Source: Dimargaris cristalligena
Taxonomy: Eukaryota; Kickxellomycota; Dimargaritomycetes; Dimargaritales; Dimargaritaceae
DNA: 64,000 bases
Assembly: GCA_027576995.1 (NCBI GenBank)
Contig: JANBQC010000011.1
Location: 62,001 to 126,000 of the forward strand
Direction: 5' to 3'
Position numbers and translations under genes: made by a program. Positions 37,744-63,400 of this stretch are shown piece by piece (the first letter of the stretch is position 1; every line of letters starts with the position of its first letter). The notes below the pieces were generated by a model. The model was not told where the DNA came from and ran no database searches. It saw only the letters and a list, made by a program, of their open reading frames with translations.

Positions 37744-39023
37744 ATGACCGCCTCCACTACAACTCCGACTTCCGCTCGGCATATCCCCACCCGGCGTGCC
37801 CGGCCCGATGAGCAGATCCCCGAGGATTACGGTACCACTCCCGGTGGAACGATCTTCTCCACCACCCCACGCGGTAAGCACACCCTAACCGTTGATAGTC
37901 CTGGCGGCCCCTGTCCCTCTAAAAACCTATTCTTAGCCACCCTCCTGTTTAGGCGGGCGCTCCAACGGGTGTTGTATACCGCCAGCCACTGCACTTGATG
38001 ATGTCCGGCTGTATCAGGCACGCCCTAAGCGTAGAGGGGGACGCTGTATAGAGGGAATCCCGGATTACATGCTACGTAAATGGTGTGTATGCCACTCCGA
38101 ATCACTAGTCGACGAAAGCCCCTGGCCTAGCCTGGCGACATTGGATACCCAGCCAACTAAATGACCATCTGTTCACCTCCACGCTTTGCCCATTAAATCC
38201 TGTACCGAATACCCATTTGCGACGCATATCGTCTGATTTATGATAGGAACCCGCATTGTCTACGGTCGCCAACAGCTCCTAGCCCTAAGTAACTCCCCCC
38301 TTTCGCAAACTCCTCCGTCGCGCATGAATGTGATTCCCGGGGTGACTGGCAGCTCGGCTGGGACCTACCGCGCACCCCATCTGGGGACCCAGCAGTCCAC
38401 CCGTCCCGTCCACAGCAGTAATCTCCGCAGTGGCGGTGGCAGCAGCAACAGCAACAACAACAACCAACACCAGCCGCAGTCGTACTCCACCTCCACCGGA
38501 AACGGGGGCAAGCTGAGCTCATCGATTGGCGGTAACCAACAACCCGGCTTCCGCGCGCCCCCCAATACCCCCGCCAACAAACTGGCTCTGCCCCAGCTCA
38601 ACGGAGATAACCACCTGCTCAACAGCGCCGAACCACTGCCCAAACTTATGACCATGAGCTTAGAGGAACAGGCCGAGGAAGACGAGGAGCTTGACCCGCC
38701 CGTGACGGCGAACGCGGATGCCGATAAAGGTATGCAACAGACTCTAGGCTATACCCCAGCTTTCTCTCTATATTGATAGATTCAGTGGATTACGAAGGAA
38801 TCATTGGCACCTTAGTTACTTTGATGCGATCGTCCGATGAGATGAAATATTTAACGTATTAGGGGAGGTACCAACCTCCTTCTATATCCCCCCATCAACA
38901 CCATATACACCCTCTTGTTTTGGCTTCTCACCCCATCCTCTTGCTTCTGCTGTACTTTGCTGCCCCGTTTTACAATGCCAACTAACAGATAAGCACCCCG
39001 GTGTCTTTGAATTGGAAATGTAG
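37744..39023 (+). CDS. eIF4E-binding protein of the metazoan 4E-BP type, three exons
   Basis: Exons are 37744-37873, 38247-38729 and 38989-39023 (130 + 483 + 35 nt, 215 aa). Donors GTAAGC and GTATGC; acceptors ATAG and ACAG; the frame is kept at both joins. 4E-BPs repress cap-dependent translation by binding eIF4E, and are released when TORC1 phosphorylates them. Visible features in order: a RAIP-like RHIP (residues 12-15); EDYGTTPGGTIFSTTPRG with the two priming threonines T32 and T41; the eIF4E-binding motif YGRQQLL (49-55, YxxxxL-phi); SP/TP sites S60 and T65; IPGVT (73-77), like the second eIF4E contact; a disordered Ser/Asn/Gln middle; and a terminal FELEM matching the TOS motif. It is longer than the about 118-aa animal proteins. 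Reading through the second intron would stop 15 codons later and lose the TOS motif. Confidence 0.92.
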
Positions 39024-56578: not shown

Positions 56579-59500
56579 TTACAAGAAACCGCTTTCCCGA
56601 AGTAAACGAGCAATTTTCTCATCCTCACGTTCCCGTGGCTCCAAGGTTAGGGAAATATCGTATAAACCAGGAGAATCGATCACTTCCTCCAAGGATTTTT
56701 CCATAAATTCCTGGATTTCCGGTACCACCGTCAGAGCATACGGGGTGCTCTGGTACGACTGGAGATCACGAATGACGGAGGCCACTTTAGTGCGCTTGTC
56801 GAAATTGATCAGGTGGGGATGATTGGGCAGGAAATCGCTGTTACCGTCTTCGACAAACACCAAGTCCTTGAGATGCGTCCCCAGGAAGGGGATACAGGGC
56901 GGGTTGCAGGAATGCAATTCCTCGCGGTATTCAACCGAATTACGGTTGGTACCCATTAGGACCTTGAGGGATTCATAGGTGGTCATGGTTCGGCCACCCA
57001 GGGTATCCCAGGTCCGCTTGAGTCGCTGCACGGACGCCAATTCGATACCGCCGAGGAAGGACATGAGGGCATTGAAATTATTGAGCGACCGGCACTTCTC
57101 GGCTACGGTAATGAAATACTTGATGATGTTACCACGCTTGCGCAGCTCCGGTTCAGACAGGATAGTGCCACCGACGAACAGACTGACCTTCGTGGAGAGC
57201 TGTACCATGGCCTTGATATTGACCGCCCGGGTCGGATCTTGCCCCATCCAGGCCTTGCTCAGGCACTCTGTGGGCTTGATTTTGTTGTACATCTTTGAAT
57301 CCAGAATAGTGAACTGCCGGGCCAACTCCAGAGCGTCAATGTCAAACACCTTGAGCTTACGGAAATTCCGGGGCAGGATCGGTGGTGGGGCCTGCTTGGG
57401 CAGATTCCGCACCAGTTTCTTAAATGCCCCGTCCGACGATTGCCGACGTTTGTCAATCAACTTGACGACCTGTTCGGCCGCCGCCGGGTTCGATTCGACC
57501 ATCGAAGTACAGGCGAAATCCCGAAGCGTGCGAAGACCGTCCATGTCCGAATCCTCGACGTAGTGAATCTCCAGCCATGTTTTGATAATGTTGTAAACAC
57601 GGACTCGGACCATTTTGAGTTTACGCTCGTTCCATATTTTCAGCTCTTCCGGCTTCAGTCCCGGTGGGGGCTGGATGTGGTAACGGCGGATGAGCAGGCT
57701 CAAGAATTCGCTGGTGGTCGTAAACGACCGGTAGGTCAGCAGGAAATTAGTGTGGAAGTTGGTGTCCACCACGTCGTGGATAGTCAGGCGCTCCACCAGG
57801 GCCCGCAGAGTGCCTCCTTTGACCTGGACTTCCATATTGAAGAGCAATTCACTGGCGTCGTACTCGTACTGCAAATACCAGGGCTTCTCATCCACCGAGC
57901 GGGCGGCGGGGGAAACCAGCGGTGCCCGCTCCCCGAAGAACTTGTTAACTTTGCTTTCAGTGGGGTTGGAAAACGGCAGACCCATAGGTTGGCCTGGGAT
58001 GCCCTCGACAGAAGACGAGCTCCCGGAACGGTGCAGGGTATGGGAGGCCGATGTGGATGAGCCGGCACCGGTAAGCAGGGTATCGTCGCCAAAGAACTTC
58101 TTGAGCTTCTTGCGCTGATTGATTGTGGATACGGACCGGTTTTGATGGGTGAAACTATCCTCGCTGTCCGAATCCGCTGGGGGTTGGTTAGCGGAGGAAT
58201 CCTGGCGCAGGTGGCGGCTCGAGGTGGTAAACGACGAGTTCTGGCTCTCGGAGGGGCGGATATCGGAGTCGGCCGTTTCAAAATGGACGGTGGTGGCGTT
58301 ACTATTGGCCCGGAGGCGGGCGTTCTGGTTGAAGGCCGAGTACTCCAAAGCCGACATATGCCGCTCTTGCATCTTGTCCGCCGGCTCCCTCAGGTAGGGC
58401 ATCGACTGGGCCCGACGGGGCTGAGCCGATAAGTCGGCGTAACTATTCGAGGGGGAATTGGTGCGCAATTTATCAATCGCATTAAGCAATAGGCTCTCCT
58501 CCTGCTGGTCCATGGCCTCAACTACGTGTTTGGCCGTAATGAGCACCTCATAGACCGAGTTATTAAGGGCGTTGCCGTGGGCCAGGATGCGATCCACAAA
58601 ATGGCCAACGCTATCCTCCTGAGAGGCGGCTTGGATGGCCATGACAATGTTGGCCAGGTCGCTGTAGAGGACCTGCTTGTTGCGTTTGAATTGGCGGGCA
58701 AGGGACTCGCCAGCCAGCTCCAGGTCCAGCTCCTCCAGGATAAGTAGGAACTGGCCAATTTCGTAAACCGATTTTTTGGCTAGCGTCACCACTCGGACCA
58801 AGCTCACCTCGCCCCGCCGCAGGAGGCGTAAAAGGAGGGTGAGGGCCTTGGCCAGGGCGTGCAGGACCGTTTCCAGCTGGGATAGGATGTCCACGTGCTT
58901 GAGATTCCGATTGGAGATCACGTCATCGTAGAGCTGGCCGTGGCTAATGTCAGTCATTACCGACATGTTGGACGGACCCACCTCGGAGGTCATGGTCCGA
59001 GCCATAGCCGGGTGGCGACCACCCAGCATGGAACCCGGCGCGGGGTCGTCCGCCAGCTCGTCTACGGGGTGCAGGGCCACATGGCTGTCCTCGGCCGCAA
59101 TCACAAAATGGCGGATAACCAACAATAGTTCACTGGCATCCCGCTGCATGATCTGTACGGCGTCAGGCGCGGGCCAGACAATCGAAGCGCTTTTGGCGGA
59201 TACTACCAATTTGCACAACGAGCTGGTAACCTGCCGGTGGTGGGCCTTGAGTAGTTTCTGGGACCGGAATATGGGCGCATCGCGCTCCACCGTGTCGGAG
59301 GCCCGGAACATAGTATGGATTGCCGCCACGATGTTGAGGGTTAGACTCAGGTATTCGTACTTGGCGTCGGACTTGCCGGCGTTGGTGAGTTGCTGAATAG
59401 CATAAACCACATTGGCCATCAGCATTTCCCAGGTGTTACCTTGGCCATGCTGGCCGTCGCCGAAATTGGCGGGGCCCATCGTCACTGAGGGTCGCCGCTG

Positions 59501-60421
59501 ACGGGGCTGTTGGCCCCGCTTTTGCAAGTTAAAAGCCCACATGGAAATATCGGTCACGGATGGAATGGATGACTGGGAGTCGGAGGATGCCCCTGAGCCC
59601 CGGCGCCGGTCTTTAGGCAAAGAATCGGTAGTAGAATGGCCAAAGGAGGCATTAGGAGAGCCAGAGCCATTGGTGAGTGACCGTATTCCGGTTTCGGGAT
59701 CCACACCATCCAGGGTCCAGGCGGTGAGGTCCGTGACCAAGTGATAGTAATAAATGCGGCCATCTGGGAGAGTTTTGAGGCCCCAGCCGGGCGGTAAGGG
59801 GTCCCGGGGAACTTTGGGCTCCACGGCCAACGGCCGAGTAATCGGTGACCCTTTAATGGGGGCCTGGAGCGGAGAGGAATTCGATGGGGGATTGGCCGAT
59901 ACCGTAGCAGAAATGGGAGTGGTAGTAGCTGGGGAGGTGATAGCAGGTGCGGTTGTACTGGCAGTGGCGTTCGATTCCGGTGGGGGACCAACTGCCATAG
60001 TAGTACTACTGCTTGGGCCTGCCCGCTGGGTGCGACTACCATTGAGGACGACCGACTCTTCCGCTGGGGCCTGGGAAGACAATGCTGAGGCCTCGGGACC
60101 TGGACTGGGCTTTTGGGGTAGAGTGGAGGTTGTTATCGAGTCAGTACCCTCCCCGTCGGCTTGAATGGCCCGAATGGCGGCTGTGGGACCCGAGATTGCG
60201 CCTGTGGGGGGCTGGGTCGGATTTACGTAAGGGTAAGTGGAGTCGGTTTGGTGGGGCTCGACATAGTTTGAGGGGAACCAGCCACGCACACCCCGGCACC
60301 GACCACTCCACCAGCCAGAGTCGAGTTGTGTGTGTACTTCGATAATATCGCCGCGTTTGAAGGATAGGCCCGAAGGGCCATTCCCTTCAAAGTCGTATAT
60401 GGCCCGTACTAAGGAGTGCAT
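56579..60421 (-). CDS. Ras guanine-nucleotide exchange factor: SH3, WW, RasGEF-N, RasGEF
   Basis: The protein has 1280 aa in one uninterrupted exon. Order: SH3 at residues 4-56 (RAIYDFEGNGPSGLSFKRGD, ending GWFPSNYVEP); a Pro/Ser/Thr-rich linker; a WW domain at about 208-238 (LPPGWGLKTLPDGRIYYYHL), with a variant end; a helical region at about 325-680 found in fungal Cdc25-type proteins; a disordered segment; the REM domain at about 850-980 (NFHTNFLLTYRSFTTTSEFL); and the CDC25 catalytic domain at about 1020-1265 (FDIDALELARQFTILDSKMY, ELASVQRLKRTW, PFLGTHLKDLVFVEDGN). It should load Ras with GTP at membranes, feeding cAMP or MAPK signalling. The SH3 begins two residues after the start Met, so the N-terminus is well defined. 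Confidence 0.94.
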   Translation of the reverse strand: MHSLVRAIYDFEGNGPSGLSFKRGDIIEVHTQLDSGWWSGRCRGVRGWFPSNYVEPHQTDSTYPYVNPTQPPTGAISGPTAAIRAIQADGEGTDSITTSTLPQKPSPGPEASALSSQAPAEESVVLNGSRTQRAGPSSSTTMAVGPPPESNATASTTAPAITSPATTTPISATVSANPPSNSSPLQAPIKGSPITRPLAVEPKVPRDPLPPGWGLKTLPDGRIYYYHLVTDLTAWTLDGVDPETGIRSLTNGSGSPNASFGHSTTDSLPKDRRRGSGASSDSQSSIPSVTDISMWAFNLQKRGQQPRQRRPSVTMGPANFGDGQHGQGNTWEMLMANVVYAIQQLTNAGKSDAKYEYLSLTLNIVAAIHTMFRASDTVERDAPIFRSQKLLKAHHRQVTSSLCKLVVSAKSASIVWPAPDAVQIMQRDASELLLVIRHFVIAAEDSHVALHPVDELADDPAPGSMLGGRHPAMARTMTSEVGPSNMSVMTDISHGQLYDDVISNRNLKHVDILSQLETVLHALAKALTLLLRLLRRGEVSLVRVVTLAKKSVYEIGQFLLILEELDLELAGESLARQFKRNKQVLYSDLANIVMAIQAASQEDSVGHFVDRILAHGNALNNSVYEVLITAKHVVEAMDQQEESLLLNAIDKLRTNSPSNSYADLSAQPRRAQSMPYLREPADKMQERHMSALEYSAFNQNARLRANSNATTVHFETADSDIRPSESQNSSFTTSSRHLRQDSSANQPPADSDSEDSFTHQNRSVSTINQRKKLKKFFGDDTLLTGAGSSTSASHTLHRSGSSSSVEGIPGQPMGLPFSNPTESKVNKFFGERAPLVSPAARSVDEKPWYLQYEYDASELLFNMEVQVKGGTLRALVERLTIHDVVDTNFHTNFLLTYRSFTTTSEFLSLLIRRYHIQPPPGLKPEELKIWNERKLKMVRVRVYNIIKTWLEIHYVEDSDMDGLRTLRDFACTSMVESNPAAAEQVVKLIDKRRQSSDGAFKKLVRNLPKQAPPPILPRNFRKLKVFDIDALELARQFTILDSKMYNKIKPTECLSKAWMGQDPTRAVNIKAMVQLSTKVSLFVGGTILSEPELRKRGNIIKYFITVAEKCRSLNNFNALMSFLGGIELASVQRLKRTWDTLGGRTMTTYESLKVLMGTNRNSVEYREELHSCNPPCIPFLGTHLKDLVFVEDGNSDFLPNHPHLINFDKRTKVASVIRDLQSYQSTPYALTVVPEIQEFMEKSLEEVIDSPGLYDISLTLEPREREDEKIARLLRESGFL

Positions 60422-63400
60422 CCCCGGAAGGGAAAAACAAAAGTATAGGTATGTGTGGTAGAGTATGCGTCAAAAGACGTGATTTTTTTAAGACAAAAAA
60501 AAAGGAAAACGATTGGTAGTCAAAAGTGCGGTTATCAGTCAACCAGGCGATTACTGCCGATTCAATACGAGGTGGGAAGTGCGATTGTAAAACCGACGAT
60601 ATAAGGTAAGAAGTGGACAACTCAGAATGTTTAACGCGAAGGACCTAATAAACACGTTGACAGTCGGTGACGGGGAATAGAGGAAAATGAGGCGTCTCTA
60701 AATAGTGGAAGGGGTGAGAATTAGGTAACCATATGTATTCGACGGCTTGGGCAGTCCGAAAAATACAAGAAAGGAGGTAGTACGGAGGAGAGGTGAAGGA
60801 AAGGGAGGGGTTAAAAGGAAGCAAATCAACCGATTCAATACGTCAGGGGGAAGGCACACAGGGCTACTGATACTGGTAAAACAAAACGAAACGAAACGTC
60901 CAAGTACACTAAGGAGAGAGGTACAGGCGCTGTGGAAAAGGGCGACGAGAGGAGGCGGTACGTCGTAAAACTAGGTAACAAGTAATAGTATAGTGCTGAA
61001 AAGTAACAAGAGTGGGTTAAAAACTTTTGGTTTCGATTCAATGGCAAGGGGGAGAGTAATAACAATATAAATGGGGATGAATAAAATAGAAGGGGGGCTC
61101 AAGGGGCAGGGAGTAGGACGGCTGGACCCGGGGGCTAGTTATAGCTACTAGTGAGAGCGAATAGAGTAGAACAGCTTGGAGGAGAAGTATCAGAGGAGAG
61201 AGTGGTCAACAAATGATAGAGCAGTTCGCTGAGTTATACAGAGCGAAGAGAATGAGTAGGAGTAGAGGGCGGACCGGGTTATGGTATTAAAAAGGAAAGG
61301 CTGGGTAACCAGATTGCCTAAACGAGTGGCTGGCTTCTGAATGGACCTTTCTGTAATATAAATTGGCGACGACGGGGATAATAAGTAGAAGGAGGTGGAC
61401 AACAACAATACAAAATATAAAAACGCTATTAGCAAAGAAGGGGCATGGGCACCGGGTAATATCGCTAATATTATGGACGCTGGGGGCGTCAAGAAATATC
61501 AAATCGGTTTAAAGTGAAATGAACCAATTATTTTTCTCTCGGAGGATGACGGGCGGCAGGTCCACCACCCATTCTCTTCTCGATTGATGTTGTCCGAAAG
61601 TTTGGTGTGGCGGCGGATGATGATTATGCTGAGAGAGAGGTGGTGTGTGGGACCTTGGCCTAGAGCGCGTTAGGGTGAGGAGAGAAGTACCGCCACCCCA
61701 TCTCAGCAATGCATATATCTACAATAGAAGGGGGGAGGGGTATGTATACAGAGGCCATCCACCATAGTCTAAACTACATTGGTATAGCTAACTATAACAA
61801 GCAACCCCCTCCTCAATTTTGCACCTAATGATGTGGAGGCCGATAATCAAGGCAGGCCAGATAGGCCACCCTCCCCCTCTTCTATCATAGCCACTACGAA
61901 CTACTGCTCAAAAATCGGGGATATAAGCGTGATAGGTAAATTCGCGACCCCAGTGCTACCCCCAACTAGAGACCGCGACCACGCTCTATGCTCATCGGTG
62001 GTCCGGGTGAGATGCTAGTAGAGGGGCCTGGCCAGCTCCACTGCTTGTGCTCAGTGTTTCGGTGGCGTTCCTGGTCAAACGACCAACCCGGATGAACCTT
62101 ATGAGGCGAAATATTACATGACTTACCTTGGAGGGGACCTGCAAACCTAAACAGGCGATGTGGAATAGAAATGGGCGGGGAATGGGGTTCTGAGAAAGCA
62201 GCACACGAAAAGGGTGAATAAGTGGAAATAAGTTAATCCGGGACTTGGTGTCTCTGGTTCCAGAGGAGTAAGAAGGAACAGGCAAAAGAAGTAAGGGGCG
62301 GTTTTGCCTGGGCGGACAACTAAGGCCGAGTATATAATATATGTATATATATATATATAGTATTGGTAGTACGCCAAGCGAAGACGACAGACCAAAGTAT
62401 TAAAGAGAGAGAGAAGCGAATAAACTTTACACCAAGCGGGACTCTCCGCAGGGGGAGGAGATATGCGGGGAAGAAAAAGGGAGCCCCAAGGATATTTAGA
62501 GCAAAAGAGAAAGAGAAGAGGTGGGTGAGGAGGCTGTGTGTATAAGCGGAGATATATGGGGAAAGGAAGGGAAAAGGAAGCAGGCGCGCTTGGACCAGTA
62601 AAGAAAGGTGCTGGTTGATTGGGAGGAGGGTTAGAGGGTTAGGTTTGGGGCGGGAAGATATGGGTTGACAATTAAGGAAATAGCAATCAGCTCTTAACAG
62701 AGTGGAGGAAGGGAAGTATATATATATATATAATTAATGTAAAAAGAGAAGGAAAGAGGGATAATATACGAAACTATGTATATACATATGTGTGTTGTAT
62801 GTATGATTAGTATTTAGCAGTGGCGAAGGAAAGGTTTGTCAAGCACCTAGCTAAAATAAACATGTATGCATGTATGCGGCAATTTGATAAGGACACTAGT
62901 ACTACTAGGACTCGGTGGTGGTGGGATGCTATGTATATATATAATCTATTAGAGAAAACAAGTAAGTTGAGGTGTGTGATACGGCAGTCCAGCAAAAGAG
63001 CTACTGGAGGTAAGGCCGGCTCAGATCCAGGTTTAATACTTTTCCACATGACGGGTGCATATACAGAGAGGGAGCTCCCCCAACCGCCCGGATGATTCCG
63101 CTGGAAGGATGAGTAAATGAAACCCGCCCTCCCCGATTATTATATCCCAAAAGGTGAGTGAGAGGAGTGAAAAAGAGAGAGATAGTGAAGGGAAAAGGCG
63201 AGACTGACTCTCGTGCCATTGGCGCAACAAGCCTCTCACCCTGGGAGTTTGGCCAGGGTTGGCTGGACTGTATGCACCCGCGCATACAAAGCGGGTTAAT
63301 GCGGAAGGCAGAGCAGAGCGGGTTCGGCTCTAGGCCTGGTCAAATTAAGATCGGGCCGACGGGGCTGTATAGGATGCGCCTTGACCCCGAAAAATCAAGT

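What the first reader, a model, noticed from the sequence alone, without database searches (positions are those of the whole stretch)
37744..39023. Complete metazoan-style 4E-BP with TOS motif in a fungus
Seen: RHIP, two TTP-G threonine sites, YxxxxL-phi, SP and TP sites, IPGVT, and a terminal FELEM, all in the order of animal 4E-BPs. Known: yeast 4E-BPs (Caf20, Eap1) share only the eIF4E-binding motif and have no TOS motif. Inference: the TORC1 to 4E-BP branch of translation control existed before the fungus-animal split and is retained here with its docking site, RAIP-like motif and phosphosites intact.
Basis: partly seen in the sequence, partly recalled or inferred. Interest (0 to 1): 0.78.

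Follow-up and report, generated by a model that had tools for sequence, protein, structure and literature searches.

The report
Animal-type 4E-BP in an early-diverging fungus
This fungal gene encodes the same brake on protein synthesis (4E-BP) that animals control through the TOR growth pathway; databases already hold relatives from many early-diverging fungi, so it is a conserved family member and not an oddity.

Summary
Three exons at 37744-39023 encode a 215-aa 4E-BP with the animal motif order, ending in FELEM, a TOS motif. Pfam eIF_4EBP scores 91 bits. The protein is identical to a public entry already named as a 4E-binding protein of Dimargaris cristalligena, so the gene is not new. Contamination is very unlikely: related genera carry it, and the animal rows sit together across a 99/94 branch. 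Of 53 proteins I labelled fungal, 36 end in a canonical TOS, 9 (all Mucorales) in a variant with D, E or A last, and 8 in neither; 4 of those 8 are labelled partial. The same genome holds Raptor, TOR, TSC2 and a class I-like eIF4E. Its Sch9/S6K-like kinase has no TOS. That the branch predates the fungus-animal split is well supported but not new in outline: Dictyostelium 4E-BP is a rapamycin-sensitive TORC1 substrate. A 2017 review called the TOS unreported in fungal TORC1 substrates, and my searches listed no later report. Binding and phosphorylation are inferred.

The parts
37744..37873 (+). Exon 1 (aa 1-43 and first base of codon 44) of the 4E-BP gene
   Evidence: protein identical to P0001
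37777..37788 (+). RHIP, RAIP-like motif (aa 12-15)
   Evidence: RDIP, RAIP, KAIP, RSIP and similar in other fungal homologues
37834..37851 (+). TTPGGT block, counterpart of human Thr37 (aa 31-36)
   Evidence: human numbering recalled
37861..37873 (+). TTPR(G), counterpart of human Thr46 (aa 40-44, codon 44 split by intron 1)
   Evidence: human numbering recalled
37874..38246 (+). Intron 1, 373 nt, GTAAGC..TAG, phase 1
38247..38729 (+). Exon 2 (rest of codon 44 to first base of codon 205)
38261..38281 (+). YGRQQLL, canonical eIF4E-binding motif YxxxxL-hydrophobic (aa 49-55)
   Evidence: present in 51 of 51 labelled fungal proteins that have an N-terminus
38294..38299 (+). SP, counterpart of human Ser65 (aa 60-61)
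   Evidence: human numbering recalled
38309..38314 (+). TP, counterpart of human Thr70 (aa 65-66)
   Evidence: human numbering recalled
38333..38347 (+). IPGVT, second (non-canonical) eIF4E contact region of animal 4E-BPs (aa 73-77)
   Evidence: the contact role is recalled
38552..38581 (+). RAPPNTPANK, block inside the long linker (aa 146-155) found only in the Dimargaritales entries held
   Evidence: RxPPNTPxNK in 6 of 175 proteins, the 6 Dimargaritales entries
38730..38988 (+). Intron 2, 259 nt, GTATGC..CAG, phase 1
38989..39023 (+). Exon 3 with stop codon; encodes the C-terminal KHPGVFELEM
   Evidence: Tieghemiomyces, D. xerosporica and D. verticillata entries carry a similar sequence across the junction
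39006..39020 (+). FELEM, terminal TOS motif (aa 211-215)

Best explanation
The gene is the orthologue of animal 4E-BP in Dimargaris cristalligena, apparently single copy. The unphosphorylated protein would bind the back of eIF4E through YGRQQLL and a side contact through IPGVT, blocking eIF4G and lowering cap-dependent translation. When nutrients are plentiful, Raptor would hold the C-terminal FELEM (helped by RHIP) so that TOR phosphorylates Thr32 and Thr41, then Thr65 and Ser60, which releases eIF4E. Shown here: gene structure, family membership, motif order, conservation of the TOS across the non-Dikarya fungi listed, and presence of TOR, Raptor, TSC2 and eIF4E genes in the same genome. Inferred from animal and Dictyostelium work: binding, phosphorylation and the effect on translation.
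For: Pfam eIF_4EBP 91 bits over the core; matches to 4E-BP1 and 4E-BP2 chains. 51 of 51 labelled fungal proteins with an N-terminus keep the eIF4E-binding motif, the Thr46-type site and the Thr70-type site. 36 of 53 end in a canonical TOS and 9 in a variant. Own genome: Raptor (196 bits for the N-terminal domain; strong matches to mTORC1 Raptor chains and to the Raptor of entries 5wbi-5wbl; 5WBK is Arabidopsis Raptor), the FRB domain of TOR, TSC2, and class I-like eIF4E exons with HPLQNAW and the W73-type VEDFW. Tree: 16 animal rows and two unnamed EukProt rows lie on one side of a 99/94 branch, all 31 fungal rows on the other.
Against: No RNA, binding or phosphorylation data were available. 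The Sch9/S6K-like kinase scanned here has no TOS-like stretch, so TOS docking is not shown to be general in this fungus. The eIF4E residue expected to match human E132 reads Y (DNA, aligned by eye; the numbering is recalled). The Raptor residues that line the TOS groove could not be checked one by one. Barua et al. report Rheb missing from Kickxellomycota, so the upstream pathway may differ from animals; I did not search for Rheb.
Confidence: 0.9

Rival explanations
1. The segment is animal DNA that contaminated the assembly, or a recent transfer from an animal.
For: The protein resembles animal 4E-BPs closely, and yeasts lack this type (the latter recalled). In the midpoint-rooted drawing Dimargaritales, Basidiobolus and animals share a weak 55/87 branch, so the tree does not prove that the fungal rows are one clade.
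Against: Relatives occur in Dimargaris xerosporica, two Dispira species and Tieghemiomyces. The four Dimargaritales rows in the tree form one 100/99 group outside the 99/94 animal branch, and the nearest rows outside that group are Basidiobolus. Neighbouring ORFs match families that are usual in fungi (GWT1, sugar transporter, SH3-RasGEF), although Pfam matches alone do not identify the organism.
Confidence: 0.01
2. It binds eIF4E and represses translation, but TORC1 does not use the TOS; the C-terminus is kept for another reason, such as stability or another partner.
For: Nine Mucorales homologues have D, E or A in place of the last TOS residue, and all nine lack the Ser65-type SP. The S6K-like kinase scanned here has no TOS.
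Against: 36 of 53 labelled fungal proteins keep F-x-hydrophobic-acidic-hydrophobic at the end. The Mucorales form resembles the PRAS40 TOS (FVMDE), which binds mammalian Raptor.
Confidence: 0.1
3. The gene model is wrong at the last intron and the terminal FELEM is not joined to the rest.
For: No transcript data were available. Both Dispira models end differently.
Against: Tieghemiomyces, D. xerosporica and D. verticillata entries carry a similar sequence across the junction, the two Dimargaris ones ending one residue short in FELE. The Dispira models read DKGK where a splice site may have been missed (my reading, no Dispira DNA seen).
Confidence: 0.03

Closest known systems
Metazoan 4E-BP1/2/3 (Pfam PF05456)
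   Same: RAIP-like motif, two TTP sites, YxxxxL-hydrophobic, SP and TP sites, PGVT, terminal TOS, in the same order
   Different: About 100 aa longer (215 against 118 in the 4E-BP1 chain), mostly in the linker between PGVT and TOS, which carries RxPPNTPxNK; second TTP block reads TTPRG, not TTPGG
4E-BPs of other non-Dikarya fungi (Conidiobolus, Basidiobolus, Syncephalis, Mortierellomycota, Mucorales, Gigaspora, Spizellomyces and related chytrids)
   Same: Same core; 36 of 53 labelled fungal proteins, this one included, have a canonical terminal TOS
   Different: Shorter linker; Mucorales TOS ends D, E or A; the chytrid N-termini seen read AP[VI]AVRR or similar, without a clear RAIP
Dictyostelium 4E-BP (TORC1 readout in PMC6977259 and PMC11379915, passages)
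   Same: TORC1-dependent phosphorylation, detected with antibodies against Thr37/46
   Different: Sequence not compared here; whether it has a TOS was not tested
Yeast Caf20 and Eap1 (recalled)
   Same: eIF4E-binding repressors with a YxxxxL-hydrophobic motif (recalled)
   Different: The only Pfam hit of this protein is PF05456; no TOS or TTPGG block in the yeast proteins (recalled, not compared)

Membership tests
Metazoan-type 4E-BP (PF05456) | Match to the family profile above its cut-off | tested here: met
   91 bits against a cut-off of 24
Metazoan-type 4E-BP (PF05456) | Canonical eIF4E-binding motif YxxxxL-hydrophobic | tested here: met
   YGRQQLL, aa 49-55
Metazoan-type 4E-BP (PF05456) | Thr37/Thr46 TTPGG-type sites plus Ser65-P and Thr70-P | tested here: met
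   TTPGGT, TTPRGT, SP, TPP
Metazoan-type 4E-BP (PF05456) | PGVT second contact region | tested here: met
   IPGVT, aa 73-77
Metazoan-type 4E-BP (PF05456) | C-terminal TOS motif F-x-hydrophobic-acidic-hydrophobic | tested here: met
   FELEM at the very end; consensus as given in PMC11348030 (passages)
Metazoan-type 4E-BP (PF05456) | N-terminal RAIP motif | tested here: inconclusive
   RHIP, three of four residues; exact RAIP in 6 and [RK]xIP in 26 of 51 fungal proteins
Metazoan-type 4E-BP (PF05456) | Binds eIF4E and competes with eIF4G | not testable with these tools
   Only the presence of class I-like eIF4E exons with the W73 motif was checked
Metazoan-type 4E-BP (PF05456) | Phosphorylated by TORC1 through Raptor | not testable with these tools
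   TOR and Raptor genes present
Yeast Caf20/Eap1 type | Sequence membership in the Caf20 or Eap1 family | tested here: inconclusive
   Only PF05456 matched in Pfam-A at E <= 0.001; I did not check that Pfam holds models for both yeast proteins, and did not align them

The most novel reading that the evidence does not exclude
Early-diverging fungi run a complete, undescribed TORC1-Raptor-TOS-4E-BP switch on translation, inherited from before the animal-fungus split. Mucorales have changed its TOS to a PRAS40-like form, and Dimargaritales have added a long linker with a conserved NTP block that acts as a further phosphorylation or docking site.
Probability: 0.35. Interest if true: 0.6.

Novelty: new member of a known kind. 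Interest (0 to 1): 0.45.

Why it matters
Yeast work shaped the view that fungi lack animal-type 4E-BPs (recalled). The distribution of this family, with its TOS, suggests that yeasts are the exception and that TORC1 control of cap-dependent translation can be studied in simple fungi. It also supplies natural TOS variants (Mucorales) for testing how Raptor reads its substrates. It agrees with the 2025 finding that the TORC1 pathway of non-Dikarya fungi resembles that of animals (PMC11836306, outline and passages) and adds a downstream arm that the main text of that paper does not mention by the terms I searched.

Tried and rejected
Animal contamination was tested with the tree, the neighbouring genes and relatives in other genera, and was rejected. 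A TOS in the fungal S6K counterpart was sought: the 638-aa Sch9-like ORF on C59 has no match to F-x-hydrophobic-acidic-hydrophobic. Of the two Pkinase_C hits only this one was scanned; the other kinase (C330) was not.

Viral contigs and the prokaryotic genome collection were scanned for stray eukaryotic 4E-BP genes whose introns could be compared; neither gave a relative (3 and 180 pattern matches, none confirmed). A shared intron position with the human gene is something I recall as possible and could not test.

Absence from Dikarya was not properly tested. No Dikarya name appears among the listed rows, but these list 120 of 1217 and 120 of 479 hits, and candidates must share short words with the query. 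Other Kickxellomycotina (Kickxellales, Harpellales) were likewise not seen in the lists and not tested further. Rheb was not searched.

The Raptor groove residues that contact the TOS were not named in the passages I read, so the groove was not checked residue by residue. Structure prediction was not run because 4E-BPs are largely disordered (recalled).

Dropped rows: the 53 labelled proteins leave out unnamed metagenome proteins. They include P0135, whose organism name was cut off in the listing, and P0041, whose name was cut off too. Of the 8 without a terminal TOS, 4 are labelled partial (P0002, P0035, P0042, P0135; P0002 and P0042 end in FELE), 2 are the Dispira models, and P0048 and P0141 are unexplained. 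One search used 51 of the 53 (P0007 and P0042 lack the N-terminus). Its RAIP-like pattern is loose, so its 36 of 51 is generous; a stricter [RK]xIP gives 26 of 51. Against my reading, 10 of those 51 lack the Ser65-type SP, 2 the PG[IV] pattern and 1 the Thr37-type pattern. The tree used 49 chosen rows out of 175 proteins held; its midpoint drawing joins Dimargaritales, Basidiobolus and animals on a weak 55/87 branch, and the other fungi form one group in only 7% of 200 bootstrap trees.

Full report
What is there. At 37744-39023 on the + strand lies a three-exon gene: 37744-37873, 38247-38729 and 38989-39023, with GT..AG introns of 373 and 259 nt, both in phase 1. It encodes 215 aa. The only Pfam match at E <= 0.001 is eIF_4EBP, 91 bits against a cut-off of 24. 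Solved 4E-BP1 and 4E-BP2 chains match with E-values down to 4e-17. The own-genome search finds only two exons of this gene, so it appears to be single copy (a strongly diverged copy could be missed).

Whose gene it is. The protein is identical over 215 aa to a public entry named 'eukaryotic initiation factor 4E binding [Dimargaris cristalligena]'. Dimargaris belongs to the Dimargaritales in the Kickxellomycotina. The window is therefore taken to be from this species (inference from the identity). The gene model and its name existed before this scan.

Motifs. In order: RHIP, TTPGGT, TTPRGT, YGRQQLL, SP, TPP, IPGVT and a terminal FELEM. FELEM fits the published TOS consensus F-x-hydrophobic-(E/D)-hydrophobic (PMC11348030, passages). 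Among 10 neighbouring ORFs (6532 aa) such a pentapeptide occurs once. Shuffling the last 25 residues of the 53 labelled fungal proteins gives one within the last 8 residues in 0.2% of cases.

Not contamination. Relatives occur in Dimargaris xerosporica, two Dispira species and Tieghemiomyces. In a tree of 49 rows and 111 columns, the four Dimargaritales rows included form one group (100/99), and the 16 animal rows plus two unnamed EukProt rows lie on one side of a 99/94 branch, with all 31 fungal rows on the other. The root is not inferred, and deep branches between fungal groups are weak: the midpoint drawing joins Dimargaritales, Basidiobolus and animals on a 55/87 branch. The tree therefore speaks against an origin inside the sampled animals, but does not settle the order of the fungal groups. 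Of 10 neighbouring ORFs, 8 match Pfam families, among them GWT1, subtilase, sugar transporter, MBOAT and RasGEF; these are usual in fungi (recalled), though not proof of origin.

Distribution. A profile of six fungal proteins found 1217 proteins, of which the best 120 were listed. A profile of 22 proteins (19 of them named fungi) found 479, of which 120 were listed. Named fungal rows come from Entomophthoromycotina and Basidiobolus, Zoopagomycotina, Dimargaritales, Mortierellomycota, Mucorales, Gigaspora and several chytrids (group names recalled from the genera). No Dikarya name is among the listed rows, but the unlisted hits were not seen.

TOS across fungi. Of 53 proteins I labelled as fungal from their source names (two names cut off), 36 end in a canonical TOS, 9 in F-x-M-[DE] followed by D, E or A, and 8 in neither. 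All nine variants are from Mucorales genera. Their ends resemble the PRAS40 motif FVMDE, which binds Raptor in mammals (PMC6325617, passages). Four of the eight without a TOS are labelled partial. Of 51 with an N-terminus, 51 keep the eIF4E-binding motif, 51 the Thr46-type site, 51 the Thr70-type site, 50 the Thr37-type site, 49 the [PA]G[IV] block and 41 the Ser65-type SP; 26 have [RK]xIP near the start and 6 exact RAIP.

Machinery in the same genome. Raptor is an open frame of 1721 aa on contig C130 and aligns to mTORC1 Raptor (5h64_B) over aa 77-955, 588 bits for that stretch. [quoted passage not shown] The FRB domain of TOR is present in a 2412-aa frame, and TSC2 is present. There are three eIF4E-family loci. 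The one on C365 carries HPLQNAW and VEDFW (sequence); the tryptophan of that second motif is needed for eIF4G and 4E-BP binding (PMC3388326, passages). The Sch9/S6K-like kinase with a FVGFTY motif has no TOS-like stretch.

A lineage-specific feature. The Dimargaritales proteins have a long linker between IPGVT and the TOS. Inside it, RxPPNTPxNK is present in 6 of the 175 proteins held, and these are the six Dimargaritales entries. A conserved TP inside a presumably disordered linker could be an extra phosphorylation or docking site. This is an inference without a test.

How it most likely works. By homology, the unphosphorylated protein clamps eIF4E and blocks eIF4G. Raptor holds FELEM and RHIP, TOR phosphorylates the TP and SP sites, and eIF4E is released. 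None of these biochemical steps was tested here.

What is already known. Dictyostelium 4E-BP is an established TORC1 substrate whose phosphorylation falls within 10 min of starvation (PMC6977259, passages) and within 5 min of rapamycin (PMC11379915, passages). This already places a TORC1 to 4E-BP link outside the animals and fungi. A 2025 study reports that non-Dikarya fungi share TORC1 pathway parts with animals (PMC11836306, outline and passages); the words 4E-BP, 4EBP, eIF4E and TOS do not occur in its main text. In the 2010 fungal Tor survey 4E-BP occurs only in the reference list (PMC2997006). [quoted passage not shown] The paper searches listed no paper whose title or shown abstract describes a TOS-bearing 4E-BP in fungi. 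The library holds only openly licensed papers, long result lists were cut, and I read passages, not whole papers.

Verdict. It is an ordinary and widespread member of a known family whose presence and TOS in early-diverging fungi seem little discussed in print.

Noticed in passing
G000:C130:577-5739 (-) and C130:7844 to about 15500 (-); loci L010, L020: Raptor and TSC2 (tuberin) frames lie next to each other on the same strand about 2.1 kb apart; a physical link between two TORC1 pathway genes.
   Followed up: partly
P0072, P0091, P0106, P0132, P0133, P0136, P0137, P0139, P0144: Mucorales 4E-BPs end in F-x-M-[DE] followed by D, E or A, not a canonical TOS, and all nine lack the Ser65-type SP.
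   Followed up: partly
P0052, P0060, P0084, P0097, P0122, P0128, P0140: Chytrid 4E-BPs keep a canonical TOS, but their N-termini read AP[VI]AVRR or close variants in place of a RAIP motif.
   Followed up: no
window 38552-38581: RAPPNTPANK block in the linker, found only in the six Dimargaritales entries among 175 proteins.
   Followed up: partly
P0003, P0004, P0007: Public Dispira and Tieghemiomyces gene models look wrong: Dispira C-termini seem to read into intron 2, and the Tieghemiomyces model lacks the exon 1 part.
   Followed up: no
P0009: A metagenome protein of 157 aa with what look like two eIF4E-binding motifs (YDRDFLI and YDRDFLL) and a terminal FELEM.
   Followed up: no
window 56582-60469 (-): 1296-aa frame with SH3, RasGEF_N and RasGEF domains, Cdc25-like.
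   Followed up: no
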